From a virus: a stretch of DNA of 36,545 nt. The stretch lies in IMG/VR virus record IMGVR_UViG_3300010885_023196, positions 1 to 36,545 of that record; one strand, written 5' to 3'. The translations under genes and the position numbers were made by a program. Shown piece by piece: positions 8,728-18,827 of the stretch (the first letter of the stretch is position 1; every line of letters begins with the position of its first letter). The notes beneath the pieces were generated by a model. It was given only the letters and a program-made list of their open reading frames with translations, was not told the origin of the DNA and did not search any database.

Positions 8728-10221
8728 ATGTCAAACATCCTAGATAAACTTAAAAAGAACTGTCGTATTAAAGAAGCAGATATCCTAGCAGATTCTCAAT
8801 TTTTTAATAATGATAATCCGGTTTCAACAGAAGTACCAATGATAAACGTGGCATTATCTGGAGCATTAAATGGAGGCCTCCTTTCAGGAACTACATTACT
8901 TTGCGGGGAATCTAAGCACTTTAAGTGCCTTGGTCCTAATACTCCAATAACAATTTATAAAAAAGAATATGAAAAAATACAAACAACATATAAGCAATTG
9001 CACGAACTTCTGGGACAAGATCCTAATATAGAATATTTCGTAAAGTCACATACAGGTAATTATACTAAAATTCTTGCCATATGCCAAAAGAAATCTAATA
9101 CATATTCAATTGATTTTGATAATGGTGTATCATTTGTTGCCGGCGATAAGCATTCATTTATGAATATGATTGATCAGTCTGTATGCACCGACGAATTGAT
9201 CCCGGGCGAAAGGATCAAGACCCTAACTGGATCTACTAAAGTAGTGGCTAGATATGATTTTAAAGAAGATCAGGATGTTTATGATATTATGGTTGGAGAT
9301 CCTCATTGGTATACTAATGATGAACAACATGGAATCATTCATCACAACACGAGTTTCGCCCTTTTAATAGCATCTGCTTATCTTAAAAAATATCCAGATG
9401 CAGCATTAATATTCTACGATACTGAATTCGGATCCCCCCAATCATATTTTAGTAGTTTTGGTATTGATCTTAATAAAGTTTTGCATGTGCCAATTAAGAA
9501 TATTGAAGAACTAAAATTTGAATTAGTTAATCAATTGGAACAGATTGATAAAAAAGAAAAAGTTATTATTATTGTTGATTCATTTGGAAATATTGCTTCT
9601 AAGAAAGAATTGGATGATGCATTAAATGAAAAATCAGTTGCAGATATGTCTAGAGCAAAGGCATTAAAAGGATTATTTAGGATGATAACGCCATATCTTG
9701 CAACCAAAGATATTCCTTTATTGGGAATTTGCCATATTTATCAGGATATGGGATTATTTCCAAAATCAATTGTTAGCGGCGGAAAAGGATTATATTATGC
9801 AGCAGATAATATTTGGATGATCGGGCGACAGCAAGATAAAGTTGGGACTGAAATTCAGGGTTATCATTTCATTATTAATATTGAGAAATCAAGATTCCTT
9901 AAAGAAAAATCTAAGATTCCAATTTCTGTTTCATGGGAAGGTGGTATTGAAAAATGGTCAGGACTTCTTGAAGTTGCTAAAGAGCTTGGCTATGTTAAAA
10001 ATGAAAAACAAGGATGGTGGTGTGCATTCGATCCCGCAACACAAACAGCACTCACAGGAAATCTTCGTGCTGCTGCAACCATGACAAAGGAATTCTGGCA
10101 AGATACAATCTTTGCTAAGACCGATTTTGCAGATGCTGTTAAAAAGCATTATACTATATCATTAAAATATATGTTACCATCTGATAAAGAACCAATTGAG
10201 GATGCCGATTCAGATGATTGA
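8728..10221 (+). CDS. uvsX: UvsX-type RecA recombinase carrying an in-frame mini-intein (497 aa precursor)
   Basis: The exteins follow T4 UvsX closely: FFN near 25-27, PMINVALSGALNGG (37-50), Walker A CGESKHFK-T, then YPDAALIFYDTEFG, IIIVDSFGNIASKKE (Walker B) and DALNEKSVADMSRAK. UvsX coats single-stranded DNA and drives strand exchange in recombination-dependent replication. The Walker A is interrupted after Lys66 by a 141-aa intein (residues 67-207), so ATP binding needs splicing. The mature protein would be 356 aa, a little shorter than T4 UvsX. Own promoter at 8693-8721; no Shine-Dalgarno. Stop overlaps the next gene. Confidence 0.92.
   Translation: MSNILDKLKKNCRIKEADILADSQFFNNDNPVSTEVPMINVALSGALNGGLLSGTTLLCGESKHFKCLGPNTPITIYKKEYEKIQTTYKQLHELLGQDPNIEYFVKSHTGNYTKILAICQKKSNTYSIDFDNGVSFVAGDKHSFMNMIDQSVCTDELIPGERIKTLTGSTKVVARYDFKEDQDVYDIMVGDPHWYTNDEQHGIIHHNTSFALLIASAYLKKYPDAALIFYDTEFGSPQSYFSSFGIDLNKVLHVPIKNIEELKFELVNQLEQIDKKEKVIIIVDSFGNIASKKELDDALNEKSVADMSRAKALKGLFRMITPYLATKDIPLLGICHIYQDMGLFPKSIVSGGKGLYYAADNIWMIGRQQDKVGTEIQGYHFIINIEKSRFLKEKSKIPISVSWEGGIEKWSGLLEVAKELGYVKNEKQGWWCAFDPATQTALTGNLRAAATMTKEFWQDTIFAKTDFADAVKKHYTISLKYMLPSDKEPIEDADSDD
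8926..9348 (+). other. Contiguous mini-intein in the UvsX Walker A
   Basis: Residues 67-207 of the precursor. Starts with Cys67 (CLGPNTPITIY, block A), has a block-B-like AGDKHSFM, a block-F-like DVYDIMVGDPHWYT and ends GIIHHN (block G, penultimate His and terminal Asn), with Thr as the +1 extein residue. All residues for class 1 splicing are present. At 141 aa there is no room for a homing endonuclease. Removal restores GESKHFK-TSFALL, matching the T4 UvsX P-loop. Confidence 0.92.
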
Positions 10222-11976: not shown

Positions 11977-11984
11977 TATAAATA
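11977..11984 (+). promoter_or_regulatory. T4-late-type promoter TATAAATA (split AAA ATPase)
   Basis: Exact octamer, 6 nt before ATG 11991, so transcription would begin at about the A of the start codon. Confidence 0.65.
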
Positions 11985-11990
11985 TAATAT

Positions 11991-12881
11991 ATGATTAATA
12001 CATCTTTGGGCTTTAGCTCCTATATTACCGAAGCAATATCTACTGCCTCTGCAGAAAAGGCAGCTTTTATTATTACAAAATATCTTAAAAAGAAGACAGG
12101 TTTAGTTTTCTTCCAATATCCTGGAACTGAAGTATTTCATAATGCTTCGGGAAAAGGTTTTGGAATGAGATTCTTTACATCTAAGAAAAATATTTCACTT
12201 CGATTTAACTGGACTAGTTCATCTTTAGTTGGATTGGTTAATTTAGATTCAGTTGATTTCTGGAATGGTAAGTCAGATGCTCCTTATCATATCAAATTTG
12301 ATACAACAGTTTCTATTATTAAGACACTTCCTGTTATTGCAGATATTGTTTCTGATGGGGGGGCTCCTAATGGTCCTATTCGTACATTACCTGATGGTAT
12401 TCCTTTGAATGAAGCTCGTGTAGATCCAGATGAAATGCTTACAAAAATCCTTGATCTTATTGCAAAGCCTGGATTTACTCGTGGATCCATCTATGCTTTA
12501 TATAAAGGTGCAGGTACCAAAATATTTGAACAACTTAAAATGATGTATCCAGAATATATTGTTAAAGCTGGAACATCTTTTGCATGGGCAGGAACACCCA
12601 AGGATCTTCAAAAAATCCTTAAAAATAAGGATGCTATCTTAGATTCTACCGGTTCTGTTTCAGGAACTGTTACTCGCGGTTCTACAAAAGAAAAATATGA
12701 ACCGGTTGGTAATATTGAAGAAATTGAAAACAATGTTGATAAACTTTCATTTGAAGCTCAATTAGCAGACCTTGAGCATTTAGTTAAGTTGACTATAGGA
12801 GGAGCATCGAATGCTCTCTTCGTAGCTGGAAGGGGAGGTTGTCTATCAGCCGATACTGCAATTGTAGCAACTCAAGATTAG
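11991..12881 (+). CDS. Split AAA ATPase, N-terminal half ending in a 13-aa N-intein (296 aa)
   Basis: Residues 1-283 are the N-extein, ending FVAGRGG; residues 284-296 (CLSADTAIVATQD) are an intein block A, followed immediately by TAG. The partner at 14163 begins with the rest of the intein and continues TGKTHT, so splicing rebuilds the P-loop GRGG-TGKT. The N-extein has no recognised domain before the P-loop. Its first residues, FSSYITEA, resemble the T4 capsid-targeting tag, with a possible prohead-protease site after ITE. Late-type promoter at 11977. The ATPase family is uncertain. The mature enzyme would be 503 aa. Confidence 0.85.
   Translation: MINTSLGFSSYITEAISTASAEKAAFIITKYLKKKTGLVFFQYPGTEVFHNASGKGFGMRFFTSKKNISLRFNWTSSSLVGLVNLDSVDFWNGKSDAPYHIKFDTTVSIIKTLPVIADIVSDGGAPNGPIRTLPDGIPLNEARVDPDEMLTKILDLIAKPGFTRGSIYALYKGAGTKIFEQLKMMYPEYIVKAGTSFAWAGTPKDLQKILKNKDAILDSTGSVSGTVTRGSTKEKYEPVGNIEEIENNVDKLSFEAQLADLEHLVKLTIGGASNALFVAGRGGCLSADTAIVATQD
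12840..12878 (+). other. N-intein fragment, 13 aa (atypical split intein)
   Basis: C-L-S-A-D-T-A-I-V-A-T-Q-D, then a stop. This is only the first beta-strand motif (block A) of an intein; block B lies in the C-part. Catalytic Cys1 is present. Split inteins with very short N-fragments are known (AceL-TerL-type), whereas most natural split inteins have about 90-120 residues here. Confidence 0.85.
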
Positions 12882-12911
12882 TACCTCTCCCTGTAACAAA
12901 TATGCAGTTTA

Positions 12912-12919
12912 TATAAATA
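12912..12919 (+). promoter_or_regulatory. T4-late-type promoter TATAAATA (homing endonuclease)
   Basis: Exact octamer, 9 nt before ATG 12929. It gives the inserted endonuclease its own promoter, and would also read on into the C-terminal half of the ATPase. Confidence 0.55.
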
Positions 12920-12928
12920 TAATTGCAT

Positions 12929-14176
12929 ATGATTATACACAAAAGAACAAGGCAAGATATAGTTATTGTTACAGAGGATGAACTATGTGTAATAATTCAA
13001 GGTGTTATAAAAGGATTCAAGAGATTTAATGAAAATAATTCTTACCTAATTGAATCCTTATTAGCATCAACATTTGATAGTTCAAATGATTTTAAAAAAT
13101 ATATACAACAGATATTTCCTCGGAATTTAATTATAAGACTTCCTCTATTAGGAATGAATCCAGAAGAAATTGCTGATAGAAGACATGCTGAATCTATTAG
13201 AGGTTTAAAGTCAGCAGCAAAGAAAAATCATAGAATATCATCATGTTTTTGTATTGAGTTTTGGATGAAAAAAGGATATAGTGATATAGAAGCCAAAGAA
13301 AAAGTTTCTGAAGTTCAATCGAAAAATTCTAGGAAAATTTCTCCGGAATCTCATATTAATTCATCACCAAGAAGAATCGAACATTGGCTTTTAAAAGGAT
13401 ATAGTGATATAGAAGCCAAAGAAAAAGTTTCTGAAGTTCAAAGAATATTATCTCAACGATGCATTGAACATTGGTTAAAATTGGGATTCTCAGAAGAAGA
13501 ATCTAAAAAATGCGTATTCAATATACAGAGTAGAAATGCAAAAGAATTTCTAAAACAATCTACGGAAGTTCGCAGAAAATGTAATAGATTATGCGAGGAA
13601 TATTGGTTAGATCGAGGTTTATCTGAAGCTGAAATTAAACAGAAAAAGATTGAGAATGGATACACATTCTCATTACAAATTTGTATAGACAAATATGGGG
13701 AAGATCTTGGATATAATATTTGGAAATCTAGGCAGATAAAATGGCAAGAAACATTAAAATCTAAATCTCCCGAAGAAATTGCTAATATTAATAGTAGAAA
13801 ATTTGCAAAAAATACTCTAAATTTTTCTAGTTTATGGCAAAAGTTTAATAAATCTGGCATTCTTTATTGTATAGAATTTGGTAATCACGTAAAAATAGGG
13901 ATTACTACAGGCACACTAGAAAGTCGATATGATAGTAAAATTAGACAAAATCATAAAACATTTATATATGAATTTTCTGATGTTTTTGATGCATATGTAG
14001 TAGAACAGACCATGATGAAAAAATATACTAATTCTATTATGAAAGATGATTATGGCGTATTTGGTTGGACAGAAGTAATTAGAAATACAACTTTAGATAA
14101 TGTAACAAAAGACTGCGATGAATATATAAATAGAATTACAAATATTAGATCAAACTTAATTAATGAAAAAGCTTAA
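12929..14176 (+). CDS. Free-standing homing endonuclease-like protein with C-terminal GIY-YIG/T5orf172-type domain (415 aa)
   Basis: ATG 12929 (MIIHKRTRQD). Residues ~105-240 hold four copies of a W(L/M)-x-x-G-(Y/F/L)-S-x-x-E motif (FWMKKGYSDIEA, HWLLKGYSDIEA, HWLKLGFSEEES, YWLDRGLSEAEI), a DNA-binding-like module seen in phage endonucleases. Residues ~245-275 carry CIDKYGEDLGYNIW..RQIKWQ, another such module. The C-terminus reads ILYCIEFGNHVKIGITTGTLESRY (about 312-335), the VKIGIT core of T5orf172/GIY-YIG-related domains. It lies exactly between the two halves of the ATPase and overlaps the C-half by 14 nt. It would cut intein-free alleles and spread the split intein. Confidence 0.7.
   Translation: MIIHKRTRQDIVIVTEDELCVIIQGVIKGFKRFNENNSYLIESLLASTFDSSNDFKKYIQQIFPRNLIIRLPLLGMNPEEIADRRHAESIRGLKSAAKKNHRISSCFCIEFWMKKGYSDIEAKEKVSEVQSKNSRKISPESHINSSPRRIEHWLLKGYSDIEAKEKVSEVQRILSQRCIEHWLKLGFSEEESKKCVFNIQSRNAKEFLKQSTEVRRKCNRLCEEYWLDRGLSEAEIKQKKIENGYTFSLQICIDKYGEDLGYNIWKSRQIKWQETLKSKSPEEIANINSRKFAKNTLNFSSLWQKFNKSGILYCIEFGNHVKIGITTGTLESRYDSKIRQNHKTFIYEFSDVFDAYVVEQTMMKKYTNSIMKDDYGVFGWTEVIRNTTLDNVTKDCDEYINRITNIRSNLINEKA
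13270..13441 (+). repeat. Exact 49-bp direct repeat (13270-13318 and 13393-13441)
   Basis: The two copies are identical and 123 bp apart, in the same reading frame, coding for GYSDIEAKEKVSEVQ twice. Perfect identity at silent positions shows a recent 123-bp tandem duplication within the endonuclease gene. Confidence 0.85.
14125..14132 (+). promoter_or_regulatory. Possible late-type promoter TATAAATA for the C-half of the ATPase
   Basis: Exact octamer inside the endonuclease gene, 30 nt before ATG 14163. It would give the C-terminal half its own transcript. Chance occurrence in AT-rich coding sequence cannot be excluded. Confidence 0.35.
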
Positions 14177-14573
14177 CACAATCAACGATATTAAGGAACT
14201 TACTGAAAAATTATATGGTTCCACACTAGAACACTTCAAATTCTATGATATTTCATCTCTCAATATTAAAATTGAAAGTCCCTCAGGTACTTCAAAGATA
14301 GTATCATTTGTAATTAAACCTGGTAATGATACACTAGTTCAATTTGAAGATGATAGAGTAGTAAAATGTTCAGATAAACATCTTCTAACTACTAAGACTG
14401 GAAGTTTTCAAGTTAAAGATTTAACTGTTGGAACTGAAGTAATTACTAAGGATGGTTCATATGTAAAGATTACAAATGTAGCAATTTCTGATTCAGTTTC
14501 TGATTACTATGATGTTGAAGTTGATTCATCCGATCATTTATATTTTACTGCTAATGGTATTTGTCATCACAAT
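14163..14573 (+). other. C-intein fragment, 137 aa, of the atypical split intein
   Basis: Holds blocks B, F and G with terminal His-His-Asn and +1 Thr. It begins with the segment that normally joins block A to the rest of the intein, which places the break earlier than in classical split inteins and fits the AceL-TerL-type layout. Confidence 0.85.
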
Positions 14574-15236
14574 ACTGGTAAAACCCATACTACAGAAAAC
14601 GTTCTTCATCAAATGGGACTTAGTGATGGTAATGGATATTTCAAAAATACTGGTTCTGCTTCAGCTGCTGGTTTATATTCTCTTTTATTTAAATATAAAA
14701 ATTCCATTGTTTTCTTTGATGACTCCGATGATGCACTTGGCGATCAAGAAGCACGCAACCTGCTAAAGGCTGCTACCGATACCAAAAAAATTCGCAAATT
14801 GGTATGGAATAAAATGGGTAAGAATATTGTTGATCCTGATGAAATGACGGATGATGAAATTCTTGATGCTGGATTGATTCCTAGATATTTCTTTTTTACT
14901 GGAAAAATTATCTTTATCTCCAACCTACCGCTAAACAAATTGGATCCAGACGGCGCTCTTCGTACACGAGCATTTATTATTGATATTAATCCAACCGATG
15001 TTGAAATTTATGATTTCATGGATAAGATTGTTGGAGATATGGAACTTGAAGGCGGTTTAGTACTTGATTTGAAACAACGCCGTCACATTGTTGATCTGCT
15101 TCGTAAAGGTAAATCAAAACAATCAGCGAATCTTCGTAAGCTATCACGAGGTCTTGCAATTGCTGGTGGTGCTCTTAGTGCCGGTGTAAATATTGCAGAT
15201 AATGAACTAAGTCGCCTCATAGAATCCTACGCATAA
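14163..15236 (+). CDS. Split AAA ATPase, C-terminal half with a 137-aa C-intein (357 aa)
   Basis: Residues 1-137 are the C-intein: NTINDIKELTEKLYG continues what normally follows block A, then NIKIESPSG, KCSDKHLLTT (block-B-like), DVEVDSSDHLYFTANG (block F) and GICHHN (block G). The C-extein starts Thr138 (TGKTHTTENVLHQMG), completing the P-loop. Further on are Walker B IVFFDDSDD, ISNLPLNKLD (sensor-1-like) and LRTRAFIIDI (arginine sensor). The last ~60 residues are basic (RKGKSKQSANLRKLSRG). The ATPase could act on DNA or protein; the substrate is unknown. ATG overlaps the endonuclease stop. Confidence 0.85.
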   Translation: MKKLNTINDIKELTEKLYGSTLEHFKFYDISSLNIKIESPSGTSKIVSFVIKPGNDTLVQFEDDRVVKCSDKHLLTTKTGSFQVKDLTVGTEVITKDGSYVKITNVAISDSVSDYYDVEVDSSDHLYFTANGICHHNTGKTHTTENVLHQMGLSDGNGYFKNTGSASAAGLYSLLFKYKNSIVFFDDSDDALGDQEARNLLKAATDTKKIRKLVWNKMGKNIVDPDEMTDDEILDAGLIPRYFFFTGKIIFISNLPLNKLDPDGALRTRAFIIDINPTDVEIYDFMDKIVGDMELEGGLVLDLKQRRHIVDLLRKGKSKQSANLRKLSRGLAIAGGALSAGVNIADNELSRLIESYA

Positions 15237-15742: not shown

Positions 15743-16714
15743 ATGTATGTGAAAACATTTCGTGAATATATTTCTGAAGTAATAGATAAAGATAAAATTA
15801 TGGCAACAGCAAATACTGTATTATCAGATATAAATGAAATCTATATTGGTTTTATATTAGCTGGCAATAAATGGTTTGATGATGCTGCAAAAAGCCATTA
15901 TAATTCTCGTATAAAACAAGCATTGCCTAATGAAGTAGCAGACGCCCAAGGTAAATCTACTATTATGGCAAAAGAATTCTTAAAGTGGGCAAAAGATAAT
16001 GGGTATAGTGGTAAAGTTAATGGAGTATGGTGGACAGCCCGTCCAGGTTCAATGAAAGCAGCAGTTGGCCAAGAAGTAGATCAACGTAAGAATCCTACTG
16101 ATATATTAATCAGATTCACTTCGGGGCCAGCAAATGGATTCCTTGGTTTATCTGCAAAGGCTACTAAGACTAAGGGAGATATTGGTTTTAAAAATCCTGG
16201 TTTAGGAACAATTGATAAAAATTTAAGTATGAATTTGGGAAAACTATATAAGACTATATTAGATTCTATTATAGTAAAATTGAATTTACCTTTAAGTGCA
16301 GATGAAAGAAAAAAATTCATTAGATCTAATTCTAAGGTTAAACCCGTTACTGAAAAAATGGGAGTTACATTACTGGCCGAAATGAGAGATCTATTATTAA
16401 TTAGATTAAAGAAAATGAAACAACCCGAGTTAGTTAAGTATCTATTATCTGATTGGATGGATGCTGAAATTTTATATCCTCCCTATATTAAAGTTACAGG
16501 ACAAGGTAATAAATCTCCATATTCAGCAACTGTTTCAGATCCGATTAAAAATGAAAAACTAGATGCTCTTGCAAAATATAAAATTACATTAGAACCAATA
16601 GGAAATGAAAGTATTGGTATCAAGGCAGGTAATAAAAGAATAATGAAAATTAGATTTAAATTTGAGTCTGAAAAAATGGCATCATCCTTAAAATTATCGG
16701 GAGATCCTTGGTAA
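15743..16714 (+). CDS. Conserved phage protein with capsid-targeting-like N-terminus, possible PD-(D/E)XK fold (323 aa)
   Basis: The first residues, VKTFREYISEV, closely resemble the T4 capsid-targeting sequence (MKTYQEFIAEA) with a potential prohead-protease site after ISE. In the middle, NPTDILIRF followed by GFLGLSAKATKT and KNPGLGTI looks like a D...(x)AK core that would fit a PD-(D/E)XK nuclease, but the motif is not complete enough to be sure. The remainder is basic. A protein packaged in the head and injected with DNA is one model. Late-type promoter 6 nt upstream; 2 nt separate it from the next gene. Confidence 0.6.
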   Translation: MYVKTFREYISEVIDKDKIMATANTVLSDINEIYIGFILAGNKWFDDAAKSHYNSRIKQALPNEVADAQGKSTIMAKEFLKWAKDNGYSGKVNGVWWTARPGSMKAAVGQEVDQRKNPTDILIRFTSGPANGFLGLSAKATKTKGDIGFKNPGLGTIDKNLSMNLGKLYKTILDSIIVKLNLPLSADERKKFIRSNSKVKPVTEKMGVTLLAEMRDLLLIRLKKMKQPELVKYLLSDWMDAEILYPPYIKVTGQGNKSPYSATVSDPIKNEKLDALAKYKITLEPIGNESIGIKAGNKRIMKIRFKFESEKMASSLKLSGDPW

Positions 16715-16716
16715 AT

Positions 16717-17637
16717 ATGTCATTTACTGAATACACACCTGATAAAGAAACTCATACTCTAGTATTTGCTTATGGATCTAATATGGATCCTAAACAAATG
16801 TGGGAACGATGCCCATCTGCATCTGTAGTTGGTAAGGGTGTTCTAAATAACTATAATAGAGATTATTCAAAATGGTCAACTATAAGATCATGTGGTGTCG
16901 AGAATGTTCAGGAAAGTGGTGGTGATCATATTATGGGTGTAATTTGGGATATACCAACATCGGAATTACATTCTTTGGCTGAATACGAGGAATCATATAT
17001 TGAGAAAACACTATCAGTATATTCATATGAGAATCAAAAGAATATTGCTTGTATAGTTTTTATTGCTAAACCAGAAGGTGAATTTAAACCTAGTTATGAT
17101 TATCTCCAAAAGGTTAAAGCCGGAGAAACATTCTTGAAAGCATTACCAACATATAAATATAACCATAAGATGAAATCATTTAGAGAACATATTAACGAAG
17201 CAGTTAAAGAAGGTAAAAATGTGCATATTATGCATATTGAGGATCAAGTTATTTACGGAGGCGTTAAAGGATGTAGAGAGGCTATTTTTGCTCTTCGTAG
17301 TTTACGTGATATGCTTGCGGGACATTCTGGTTCATCGCTTGATATTGCTGCTAAATTTGACGGTTGTATTCATAAAGATACTCTAGTAGTAACTCAAGAT
17401 TCGGTTAAAAAAGTATCTGATTTAACAAATGAAGATTTTATTAAATGTTATGATATTGATACACACACTACTAAGTATTATAATAATACTATGCCTAGAA
17501 TTACTGGAGGTTCTAAAGATTGGGTTGAAGTAATTTTAGAAGATGGTTCATCATTTATTTGTACTGAAGATCACCCACTATTAACTAAAGATAATCAATA
17601 CATTGAAGCAATTGATTGTTTGGATGAAGATATATAA
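16717..17637 (+). CDS. Gamma-glutamylcyclotransferase-like domain fused to the N-half of a split ligase-like nucleotidyltransferase (306 aa)
   Basis: Residues 13-~130 are GGCT-like: VFAYGSN (16-22), VVGKGVLNNY and LAEYEES (87-93) with the likely catalytic Glu. From Met152 a second protein seems to begin: MKSFREHINEA, a capsid-targeting-like tag, then HIMHIEDQVIYGG and AAKFDG (211-216), which resembles motif I (KxDG) of ATP-dependent ligases and capping enzymes. The 90-aa N-intein starts at Cys217. A TATAAATA lies at 17152, just before Met152. So this may be two genes whose separating stop was lost, with both a fusion and a short form made. The C-half is at 17670. Confidence 0.8.
   Translation: MSFTEYTPDKETHTLVFAYGSNMDPKQMWERCPSASVVGKGVLNNYNRDYSKWSTIRSCGVENVQESGGDHIMGVIWDIPTSELHSLAEYEESYIEKTLSVYSYENQKNIACIVFIAKPEGEFKPSYDYLQKVKAGETFLKALPTYKYNHKMKSFREHINEAVKEGKNVHIMHIEDQVIYGGVKGCREAIFALRSLRDMLAGHSGSSLDIAAKFDGCIHKDTLVVTQDSVKKVSDLTNEDFIKCYDIDTHTTKYYNNTMPRITGGSKDWVEVILEDGSSFICTEDHPLLTKDNQYIEAIDCLDEDI
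17152..17159 (+). promoter_or_regulatory. Internal late-type promoter TATAAATA before a nested start at 17170
   Basis: Exact octamer 10 nt before an in-frame ATG at 17170 that begins a typical tag (MKSFREHINEA). It suggests an independent, shorter ligase-like N-half (155 aa) starting inside the fusion gene. Confidence 0.55.
17365..17634 (+). other. N-intein fragment, 90 aa (classical split intein)
   Basis: Starts Cys217 (CIHKDTLVVTQDSVKKVSDL, block A), with EVILEDGSSFICTEDHPLLT as block B (T-x-D-H). The length of 90 aa is close to classical split inteins such as gp41-1 type. The open frame ends EDI-stop at 17637. Confidence 0.9.
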
Positions 17638-17669: not shown

Positions 17670-17783
17670 ATGAAAGTAATTGCTGTAAATAAACTACAAG
17701 AAAAATATGATCAATGGGATTTGACTACCCCAACATCAAATTTTACTATTCTAGCAGGAAACAATGAAGTAATTATTCATAAT
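17670..17783 (+). other. C-intein fragment, 38 aa
   Basis: Starts at its own ATG 32 nt after the N-half stop, ends VIIHN with +1 Ser. No endonuclease gene lies between the halves, unlike the other two split genes. Blocks F and G are present. Confidence 0.9.
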
Positions 17784-18827
17784 TCTCCTGCAGTATTTGC
17801 TGGTACAGATCCATCTGATGGAAAATTCTTTGTTGCTAAGAAAGGTATATTTAATAAGAATCCAAAAGTATATAAGAGCATAGCCGATGTACGTGCCGAT
17901 ACTTCTGGAGATTTGGCTGAGAAATTATCAGTTGCTTTTACTGAACTACAAAAGATTGGTATTGAAGGAATATTACAAGGTGATATTGCTTTTACACAAA
18001 AAGACTTATCTGTTGAAACTTTTGATGGAGAATCTTATCTCACATTTCAACCAAATACTATTGTATATGCAGTTCCGGCTGATAGTGCCCTTGCTGCTAC
18101 TATTAAAAAGGCGAAAATAGGTGTTCTATTCCATACTCGTTATGTGGGAGATTCATTTGAGAATTTAAAGGCTATATATGATTTTGATTCTAGCACCTTA
18201 AAAAAGGTACCATCAGTTTGGGCACGTGATACATATGTACGAGATCTATCTGGTAAAGCAACATTAACGGTCGAAGAAACAGCTGAACTTTCCGATAAAT
18301 TATCTACAGCCGGTGTTATATTTCAAAAAATTGGGGGATCAACCCTTCGAGAGATTGAAAATAATCCTGAGCTTGCACAGAATCTTGAAACATTTAATAA
18401 TACTTATGTTCGCAAAGGTGAGGTTGTTACAAATACAACTAAACATGTGGAAAATCTAATTAAATGGGTAACCGATAAATTTAATAAAGATATTGAATCT
18501 AAGAAGAGCGAAAAAGGAAAAGAGATTTCAACAATAAAACGGGATGAATATCTTAAATTCTTCTCAGATGAAAATAAGAAAAATCTTGATCTGATTTATC
18601 AATTACAAAATGCAATAATTGAAGCTAAACAAATCATTATACGAAAGCTTGATACTCTAAAGAAACTAACAACCTTTGTACGAACAAAGGACGGTTTCCG
18701 TGTAACAGGCCAAGAAGGGTTTGCTATCAGCGATCGTTTAAAGAATAATGTGGTTAAATTGGTTGATCGCATGGAATTCTCAAAGAACAACTTTAGTCCA
18801 GAAATAATAAAAGGATGGGATAAATAA
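17670..18827 (+). CDS. Split ligase-like nucleotidyltransferase, C-terminal half with 38-aa C-intein (385 aa)
   Basis: Residues 1-38 are a C-intein (WDLTTPTSNFTILAGNNEVI as block F, ending VIIHN); Ser39 opens the C-extein SPAVFAGTD. Joined to the N-half this gives AAKFDG-SPAVFAG, i.e. KxDG with its usual hydrophobic surroundings. Later parts include GKFFVAKKG, GIEGILQGDIAF (possible motif III/IV) and a long helical C-terminal region with many Lys and Glu. The likely activity is covalent nucleotidyl transfer on RNA or DNA, but a full ligase motif set cannot be traced, so a catalytic or degenerate role remains open. The joined protein would be 563 aa, or 412 aa from the nested start. Confidence 0.75.
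   Translation: MKVIAVNKLQEKYDQWDLTTPTSNFTILAGNNEVIIHNSPAVFAGTDPSDGKFFVAKKGIFNKNPKVYKSIADVRADTSGDLAEKLSVAFTELQKIGIEGILQGDIAFTQKDLSVETFDGESYLTFQPNTIVYAVPADSALAATIKKAKIGVLFHTRYVGDSFENLKAIYDFDSSTLKKVPSVWARDTYVRDLSGKATLTVEETAELSDKLSTAGVIFQKIGGSTLREIENNPELAQNLETFNNTYVRKGEVVTNTTKHVENLIKWVTDKFNKDIESKKSEKGKEISTIKRDEYLKFFSDENKKNLDLIYQLQNAIIEAKQIIIRKLDTLKKLTTFVRTKDGFRVTGQEGFAISDRLKNNVVKLVDRMEFSKNNFSPEIIKGWDK

What the first reader, a model, noticed from the sequence alone, without database searches (positions are those of the whole stretch)
12840..14573. Atypical split intein in an AAA ATPase with a 13-aa N-intein and a homing endonuclease in the break
The N-half ends CLSADTAIVATQD-stop right after FVAGRGG; the C-half starts with a 137-aa C-intein ending HHN and continues TGKTHT. 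Splicing would rebuild the P-loop GRGG-TGKT. Natural split inteins usually break after about 90-120 residues; a 13-residue N-intein is at the short extreme of the AceL-TerL-like class. A GIY-YIG/T5orf172-like endonuclease with its own late-type promoter fills the break and overlaps the C-half by 14 nt. Thus the P-loop exists only after two proteins meet.
Basis: partly seen in the sequence, partly recalled or inferred. Interest (0 to 1): 0.92.

Follow-up and report, generated by a model that had tools for sequence, protein, structure and literature searches.

The report
Phage ATPase split by 13-residue intein
A phage ATPase gene is broken in the middle of its ATP-binding loop into two genes whose protein ends carry the two parts of a self-splicing element, and the first part is only 13 amino acids long, shorter than the shortest natural one described (15); an endonuclease gene sits in the break, at a place inside such elements where endonucleases are reported not to occur.

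Summary
Window 11991-12881 encodes the N-half of a T4 NrdC.10-like ATPase ending GRGG|CLSADTAIVATQD-stop. Window 14163-15236 encodes a 137-aa C-intein ending HHN, then TGKT. A 415-aa endonuclease-like ORF fills the break.

Relatives make the split-intein reading strong. Seventy-six viral relatives carry the uninterrupted gene (GxGG[V/I]GKT). Two other phage lineages carry the same split intein, again with exactly 13 N-intein residues and no endonuclease gene. One (L052) keeps a decayed remnant of the endonuclease's 3' end, with the promoter-like TATAAATA before the C-half; the other (G001) lacks the gene entirely. The C-intein is under purifying selection (dN/dS 0.13, as in the extein). Its model matches inteins, VidaL and gp41-1 among them. 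Appending the 13 residues restores the intein N-terminal profile.

Published natural N-inteins span 15-37 aa, so 13 is a new minimum. Related P-loop inteins (gp41 helicase, PhoH) also have an endonuclease gene at this early site, and the helicase intein exists split with it and contiguous without it in near-identical phages. This suggests that endonuclease insertion at the S1 loop creates atypically split inteins. Splicing is untested, and the nuclease class only weakly supported.

The parts
11977..11984 (+). TATAAATA late-promoter-like element 14 nt before the N-half ATG
   Evidence: TATAAATA-N4-10-ATG occurs 7 times on + and 0 on -, 0.8 expected
11991..12839 (+). N-extein: N-terminal 283 aa of a NrdC.10-like P-loop ATPase, ending GRGG
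   Evidence: about 40-59% identical to intact relatives
12840..12881 (+). 13-aa N-intein CLSADTAIVATQD plus TAG stop
   Evidence: homologous 13-aa N-inteins in L052 (CLSADTEINATME) and G001 (CLAGKTEINIQIG)
12912..12919 (+). TATAAATA element 17 nt before ATG 12929 of the endonuclease ORF
12929..14176 (+). Putative homing endonuclease gene (415 aa): N-terminal and middle repeats shared with other phage endonuclease-like ORFs, C-terminal domain with T5orf172/GIY-YIG-like motifs
   Evidence: T5orf172 E=0.088 only
13823..14173 (+). C-terminal putative nuclease domain (GILYCIEFGNHVKIGITTG...R...E)
   Evidence: AlphaFold single-sequence model uninformative (pLDDT 38)
14125..14132 (+). TATAAATA element inside the 3' end of the endonuclease ORF, 38 nt before the C-half ATG; same spacing kept in L052
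   Evidence: window 14125->14163; L052 4552->4590
14163..14573 (+). 137-aa C-intein (block B SDKH, block F, penultimate H, terminal N)
14574..15236 (+). C-extein: TGKT of the Walker A loop and C-terminal 220 aa of the ATPase
   Evidence: phrog_1250 E=1.6e-17

Best explanation
This is a fractured gene. A T4 NrdC.10-like P-loop ATPase of a T4-like phage is encoded as two proteins whose ends carry a naturally, atypically (S1) split class 1 intein: a 13-aa N-intein and a 137-aa C-intein. Proposed mechanism: both halves are made in the same infection, each from its own TATAAATA promoter-like element. The 13-residue N-intein, which forms the first beta strands, docks into the nearly complete HINT fold of the C-intein. 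Cys1 and Thr+1 then drive N-S acyl shift, transesterification and cyclisation of the terminal Asn, joining GRGG to TGKT and making a 503-aa ATPase with an intact Walker A loop. The gene in the break is a free-standing homing endonuclease that probably cuts intein-less alleles at the conserved P-loop DNA and so spreads the whole cassette. Shown: gene structure, homology, conservation of the split, intact alleles, selection, predicted fold of the C-intein. Inferred: trans-splicing, promoter function, nuclease activity and target.
For: ORFs as stated. 76 of 80 viral relatives have an uninterrupted ATPase reading GxGG[V/I]GKT at the junction. L052/L054/L055/L056 (three metagenomes) have the same split: 13-aa N-intein CLSADTEINATME-TAA, 137-aa C-intein 81% identical, no endonuclease gene. 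G001, a distant phage with in-frame TAGs, has GRGG|CLAGKTEINIQIG-TAA (13 aa), a 93-nt gap and a 132-aa C-intein 42% identical, then TGKT. dN/dS between window and L052: C-intein 0.126, C-extein 0.116, N-extein 0.279. TIGR01445 intein_Nterm: C-intein alone E=0.024 in the wrong place; N-intein plus C-intein E=1.3e-4 over residues 1-89 and profile positions 1-82 of 83. AlphaFold model of the C-intein pLDDT 82; its leading PDB fold matches are inteins (gp41-1 E=3e-6, VidaL 2.5e-5, Cat 1.6e-4). No Rfam intron in the break. Exteins of window and L052 are sisters (SH-aLRT 98) and L052 keeps a remnant of the endonuclease 3' end, so the split outlived the endonuclease.
Against: No splicing experiment. 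The record is a 36.5-kb stretch, so an intact copy elsewhere in the phage genome is not excluded. The 13-aa N-intein is shorter than any natural one characterised (15 aa). The nuclease class rests on a sub-threshold profile match (E=0.088). No near relative of the whole endonuclease was found. All three lineages are metagenomic.
Confidence: 0.9

Rival explanations
1. Decayed gene: an endonuclease insertion broke an intein-bearing ATPase gene, the halves no longer splice, and the ATPase is lost (a dispensable NrdC.10-like gene).
For: T4 nrdC.10 is conserved in only 3 of 6 T4-like phages (PMC1524935), so loss could be tolerated; the N-intein is extremely short.
Against: Both halves keep open frames and low dN/dS in window versus L052; all splicing residues are kept; a distant phage keeps the same 13-aa split; the C-half keeps its start codon and a promoter-like element at identical spacing after endonuclease loss.
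Confidence: 0.05
2. The break is bridged at RNA or translation level (intron splicing, readthrough, frameshift or bypassing) and the intein works in cis.
For: N-half and C-half lie in the same reading frame; phage genes are often interrupted by introns with endonucleases.
Against: No Rfam intron family in 12600-14400; in G001 and L052 the break is only 93 and 144 nt, unlike in sequence, with several in-frame stops; the C-half begins with a Met at the same alignment position in all three.
Confidence: 0.03
3. The two halves act as a non-covalent two-subunit ATPase without splicing, like the genes-in-pieces phage ribonucleotide reductase.
For: A precedent exists: a homing endonuclease insertion splitting a ribonucleotide reductase gene into two functional peptides (cited in PMC10448857).
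Against: The break falls inside the Walker A loop, and conserved intein sequence (block A in one half, blocks B-G in the other) is kept at both ends, which has no use without splicing.
Confidence: 0.02

Closest known systems
Fractured genes with split inteins (gp41, NrdA/NrdJ, IMPDH; Dassa et al. 2009; details from memory, paper not held)
   Same: Extein gene broken inside a split intein, with a free-standing endonuclease gene in the break; phage and metagenomic origin.
   Different: Those break at the canonical site (N-intein about 90-120 aa) and carry a Vsr-like endonuclease; here the break is at the S1 site after 13 aa and the nuclease domain differs.
VidaL and PolB16 OarG atypically split inteins
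   Same: S1 split after the first beta strands; short N-intein (16 and 15 aa), long C-intein. VidaL is the top PDB match of the alignment profile (E=7.8e-16).
   Different: Shorter N-intein (13 aa); different host gene; PolB16 is Ser1/Ser+1, this one Cys1/Thr+1; an endonuclease gene lies in the break.
AceL-TerL / GOS-TerL / Cat atypically split inteins
   Same: Short N-intein, long C-intein, phage gene.
   Different: Split at S2 after the first helix (25-37 aa), in the terminase gene.
P-loop intein of the gp41-like helicase in sister phages (L006, L011, L032, L041, L048, L053 split; L022, L049 contiguous)
   Same: Homologous intein (25-29% identical), same type of P-loop site, N-intein of 18 aa when split, endonuclease-like gene in the break.
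   Different: HNH-like ORF on the opposite strand; contiguous forms exist.
PhoH P-loop intein of huge phage LR756500 (L169)
   Same: Atypical split at a P-loop (GKAG|26-aa N-intein ... HN|TGKT), endonuclease-like ORF in the break on the same strand, overlapping the C-half; its repeats match this endonuclease (40% over 107 aa).
   Different: Different extein (PIN-PhoH); C-terminal nuclease domain looks Vsr-like by eye; 26-aa N-intein.

Membership tests
Split intein (class 1) | N-half ends in an N-intein beginning with Cys/Ser; C-half begins with a C-intein ending His-Asn followed by Cys/Ser/Thr | tested here: met
   C1, HHN, T+1
Split intein (class 1) | HINT fold and conserved blocks | tested here: met
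   model and profiles match inteins; block B His and terminal HN conserved
Split intein (class 1) | Exteins together form one protein found uninterrupted in relatives | tested here: met
   76 intact relatives
Split intein (class 1) | Protein trans-splicing | not testable with these tools
   needs co-expression
Atypically (S1) split inteins | Split right after the first beta strands (short N-intein) | tested here: met
   13 aa in three lineages; published natural range 15-37 aa
Fractured genes | Free-standing endonuclease gene between the two intein halves | tested here: inconclusive
   a 415-aa ORF with endonuclease-like repeats is there but its nuclease domain is below family cut-offs
GIY-YIG / T5orf172 endonucleases | Match to a family profile above its cut-off | tested here: not met
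   T5orf172 13.8 bits against a cut-off of 20; none
GIY-YIG / T5orf172 endonucleases | GIY...YIG motifs, catalytic Arg and Glu | tested here: inconclusive
   read by eye: GILYC...KIGIT...SRY...VEQ; no relatives available to test conservation
T4 NrdC.10 family (phrog_1250) | Sequence match including the P-loop region | tested here: met
   E=1.6e-17; T4-like phages, NrdC.10 annotated in RB69

The most novel reading that the evidence does not exclude
The loop after the first intein strands (S1) is a second invasion site for homing endonucleases in inteins. Because a domain inserted away from the usual site is thought to clash with the extein, endonucleases can occupy S1 only as free-standing genes, which breaks the intein into two polypeptides. 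This would be the origin of atypically split inteins, and it recurs with different nucleases in the P-loops of at least three ATPase families (NrdC.10-like, gp41 helicase, PhoH). The endonuclease can later be lost, leaving a bare split intein or a contiguous one.
Probability: 0.55. Interest if true: 0.78.

Novelty: new variant of a known kind. Interest (0 to 1): 0.65.

Why it matters
It would be the shortest natural N-intein (13 aa against a published record of 15), of direct use for peptide-based protein labelling. More basically, it bears on a stated puzzle: all endonuclease domains inside inteins sit at one site, and inteins with endonucleases elsewhere 'should exist' if invasion is random (PMC6801210). 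Here endonuclease-like genes sit at a different site in homologous P-loop inteins, on either strand, and near-identical phages show the contiguous and the fractured form. That gives a concrete, testable route by which atypically split inteins arise.

Tried and rejected
Intron hypothesis: Rfam scan of the break gave only chance hits. Single contiguous intein with a nested endonuclease: rejected, since the endonuclease lies in another frame with stops between. Structure of the nuclease domain: single-sequence AlphaFold failed (pLDDT 38), so no fold search was made with it. Profile searches for GIY-YIG relatives: only T5orf172 at E=0.088; genome-mode searches with T5orf172 and MUG113 found nothing. 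Searches for relatives of the endonuclease in viral contigs and phages gave only matches to its repeats. C-intein relatives in GTDB genomes: none; in the phage collection: none. The HHN|TGKT pattern scan mostly returned unrelated inteins and chance matches, but found G001. A two-chain structure prediction was not possible with the tools. The Dassa 2009 paper is not held, so its details are from memory; whether the papers on VidaL or AceL-TerL noted endonuclease genes in the break could not be checked. Several calls with wrong frames returned errors and were repeated.

Full report
Observation. The window (an IMG/VR virus record of 36,545 bases) holds three consecutive ORFs on the + strand. The first, 11991-12881, ends ...NALFVAGRGG-CLSADTAIVATQD-stop. 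The third, 14163-15236, begins with 137 residues ending GICHHN and continues TGKTHTTEN.... Between them lies an ORF to 14176 that overlaps the third by 14 nt; its likely start is ATG 12929. The coordinates and peptide sequences of the finding are correct.

What the ATPase is. The C-half matches phrog_1250 (E=1.6e-17) and NrdC.10 of T4-like phages at about 30% identity; NrdC.10 was earlier noted as a weak AAA ATPase match (PMC1524935). A scan of viral contigs returned 80 close relatives. In 76 the gene is uninterrupted and reads GxGG[V/I]GKT at exactly the place of the break. The split therefore falls inside the Walker A loop, and splicing would give GRGGTGKT. All three intein-bearing lineages have Thr at +1 where intact alleles have Val or Ile, so the nucleophile probably came with the element.

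The same split elsewhere. Four of the 80 relatives (L052, L054, L055, L056; three metagenomes, nearly identical) carry the same split intein: CLSADTEINATME-stop, that is 13 residues again, and a 137-aa C-intein 81% identical, starting at the same methionine. A third, distant allele came from a pattern scan for HHN|TGKT: G001, a 97-kb phage contig whose N-half has in-frame TAG codons, so TAG is probably read as an amino acid. Its N-half ends GRGG-CLAGKTEINIQIG-TAA, 13 residues, and its C-half, read with TAG as Gln, starts MKTTLSAIKQM... and ends GINHHN-TGKT. Its C-intein is 42% identical to the window's. Thirteen residues in three lineages is a conserved property, not an assembly error.

The endonuclease comes and goes; the split stays. 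G001 has only 93 nt between the halves. L052 has 144 nt, and in one frame this reads SLLEDVMKDC*EYINNIIETKSNLINEK, a decayed copy of the end of the window's endonuclease (TTLDNVTKDCDEYINRITNIRSNLINEKA). The exteins of window and L052 are sisters (SH-aLRT 98), so L052's ancestor probably had the endonuclease and lost it. What it kept includes a TATAAATA element 38 nt before the C-half ATG, at the same spacing as in the window.

Expression. TATAAATA followed after 4-10 nt by ATG occurs 7 times on the + strand and 0 times on the - strand (0.8 expected). It precedes the N-half by 14 nt and the endonuclease by 17 nt; a further TATAAATA, 38 nt before the C-half, lies in the 3' end of the endonuclease ORF. 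That these are late promoters is inference from the T4 consensus.

Is it an intein? The C-intein alone gives a misplaced match to TIGR01445 (E=0.024); with the 13 residues in front the match covers the profile from position 1 to 82 of 83 (E=1.3e-4). An AlphaFold model of the C-intein (pLDDT 82) has intein structures as its leading PDB matches, including gp41-1, VidaL and the engineered Cat intein. The alignment profile finds VidaL first (E=7.8e-16), though that profile includes the helicase inteins; the window's intein alone is closest to gp41-1 (E=1.7e-4). C1, block B His, penultimate His, terminal Asn and Thr+1 are present. dN/dS of the C-intein between window and L052 is 0.126, like its extein (0.116), which speaks against decay. 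No intron was found.

How short is 13? The 2026 literature gives 15-37 aa for natural atypically split inteins, with PolB16 (15 aa) as the record, VidaL 16, AceL-TerL 25; an artificial split after 11 aa works (PMC13014065; PMC10189870). So 13 is a new natural minimum as far as the held literature goes, and biochemically plausible. The split is at S1 (VidaL, PolB16), not at S2 (AceL-TerL).

The endonuclease. Its N-terminal and middle repeats are shared with endonuclease-like ORFs in other split genes: L041 (E=5e-11) and LR756500 (E=2e-16), whose C-terminal domains look Vsr-like by eye. Its own C-terminal domain has GILYC...KIGIT...R...E, but T5orf172 is only E=0.088, below the cut-off. The GIY-YIG label is plausible, not shown.

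A wider pattern. In sister phages the gp41-like helicase has a homologous intein in its own P-loop. Eighteen loci have it split (after 18 residues, for example CVHPETPIRVRIHKKILS-stop), with an HNH-like ORF (E=0.012) on the opposite strand in the break where it was examined; seven have it contiguous; 36 read as empty. L048 (split) and L049 (contiguous) are 97% identical over 107 nt of the C-intein, and they differ by the endonuclease segment plus a few codons. In LR756500 a PIN-PhoH protein is split at GKAG|TGKT, with a 26-aa N-intein and an endonuclease-like ORF in the break. Beyer et al. state that all endonuclease domains in inteins sit at one site and that it is puzzling that none sit elsewhere, proposing steric clash with the extein (PMC6801210). 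Free-standing endonuclease genes at S1 fit that: as a separate protein they cannot clash. The inference is that endonuclease invasion at S1 makes atypically split inteins. The direction (insertion into a contiguous intein, or fusion after loss) is not settled by these data.

Verdict. A real, conserved, atypically split intein in a P-loop ATPase with the shortest natural N-intein found in the held literature, in a fractured-gene arrangement at a non-canonical site. New variant of a known kind. Splicing and nuclease activity remain to be tested.

Noticed in passing
window 16708-17637 and 17670-18827: A second fractured gene: DUF6267/phrog_455 protein split by a canonical split intein (N-intein 90 aa after KFDG, 17365-17634; C-intein 38 aa ending IIHN|S), 32 nt apart, no endonuclease; an intact relative has Ala where the split form has Ser+1.
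   Followed up: partly
window 8728-10221 (intein about 8926-9351): UvsX-like recombinase with a contiguous mini-intein in its P-loop (GESKHFK|C...HHN|TS).
   Followed up: partly
L006, L011, L041, L048, L053 versus L022, L049: gp41-like helicase P-loop intein exists split (18-aa N-intein, HNH-like ORF on the opposite strand) and contiguous in near-identical phages.
   Followed up: partly
L041 1300-4106; L022 1202-4103: The same helicase gene also carries a canonical split intein with an endonuclease-like gene in the break (Vsr-like by eye in L041; HNH plus NUMOD3 in L022), so in L041 one protein is encoded in three pieces.
   Followed up: no
L169 (LR756500.1 37500-43000, minus strand): Unannotated huge-phage PIN-PhoH protein split at its P-loop by an atypically split intein (26-aa N-intein) with an endonuclease-like ORF in the break.
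   Followed up: partly
L162 (Vibrio phage vB_VmeM-32) 1-1562: Isolated phage with UvsX split by a canonical split intein and a gene annotated as similar to SegG endonuclease in the break.
   Followed up: no
L168 4239-7454: Terminase-like gene with an atypically split intein (N-intein about 36 aa) and no endonuclease ORF in a gap of about 120 nt.
   Followed up: no
window, all genes: Start codons mostly lack Shine-Dalgarno sequences; TATAAATA sits 14-18 nt before several ATGs, which would give nearly leaderless transcripts if it is the late promoter. A host that does not use Shine-Dalgarno sequences, such as Bacteroidota, is possible.
   Followed up: partly
window 13263-13440: The endonuclease ORF contains an exact repeat encoding KGYSDIEAKEKVSEVQ, suggesting recent duplication of a repeat.
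   Followed up: no
G001 / L160: The distant phage reads through TAG codons in the ATPase N-half and one in the C-intein, so TAG is probably recoded.
   Followed up: partly
window 16708-17637: A gamma-glutamyl cyclotransferase-like domain runs in frame into the DUF6267 N-half; a TATAAATA at 17152 just before ATG 17170 suggests the DUF6267 part starts on its own.
   Followed up: no
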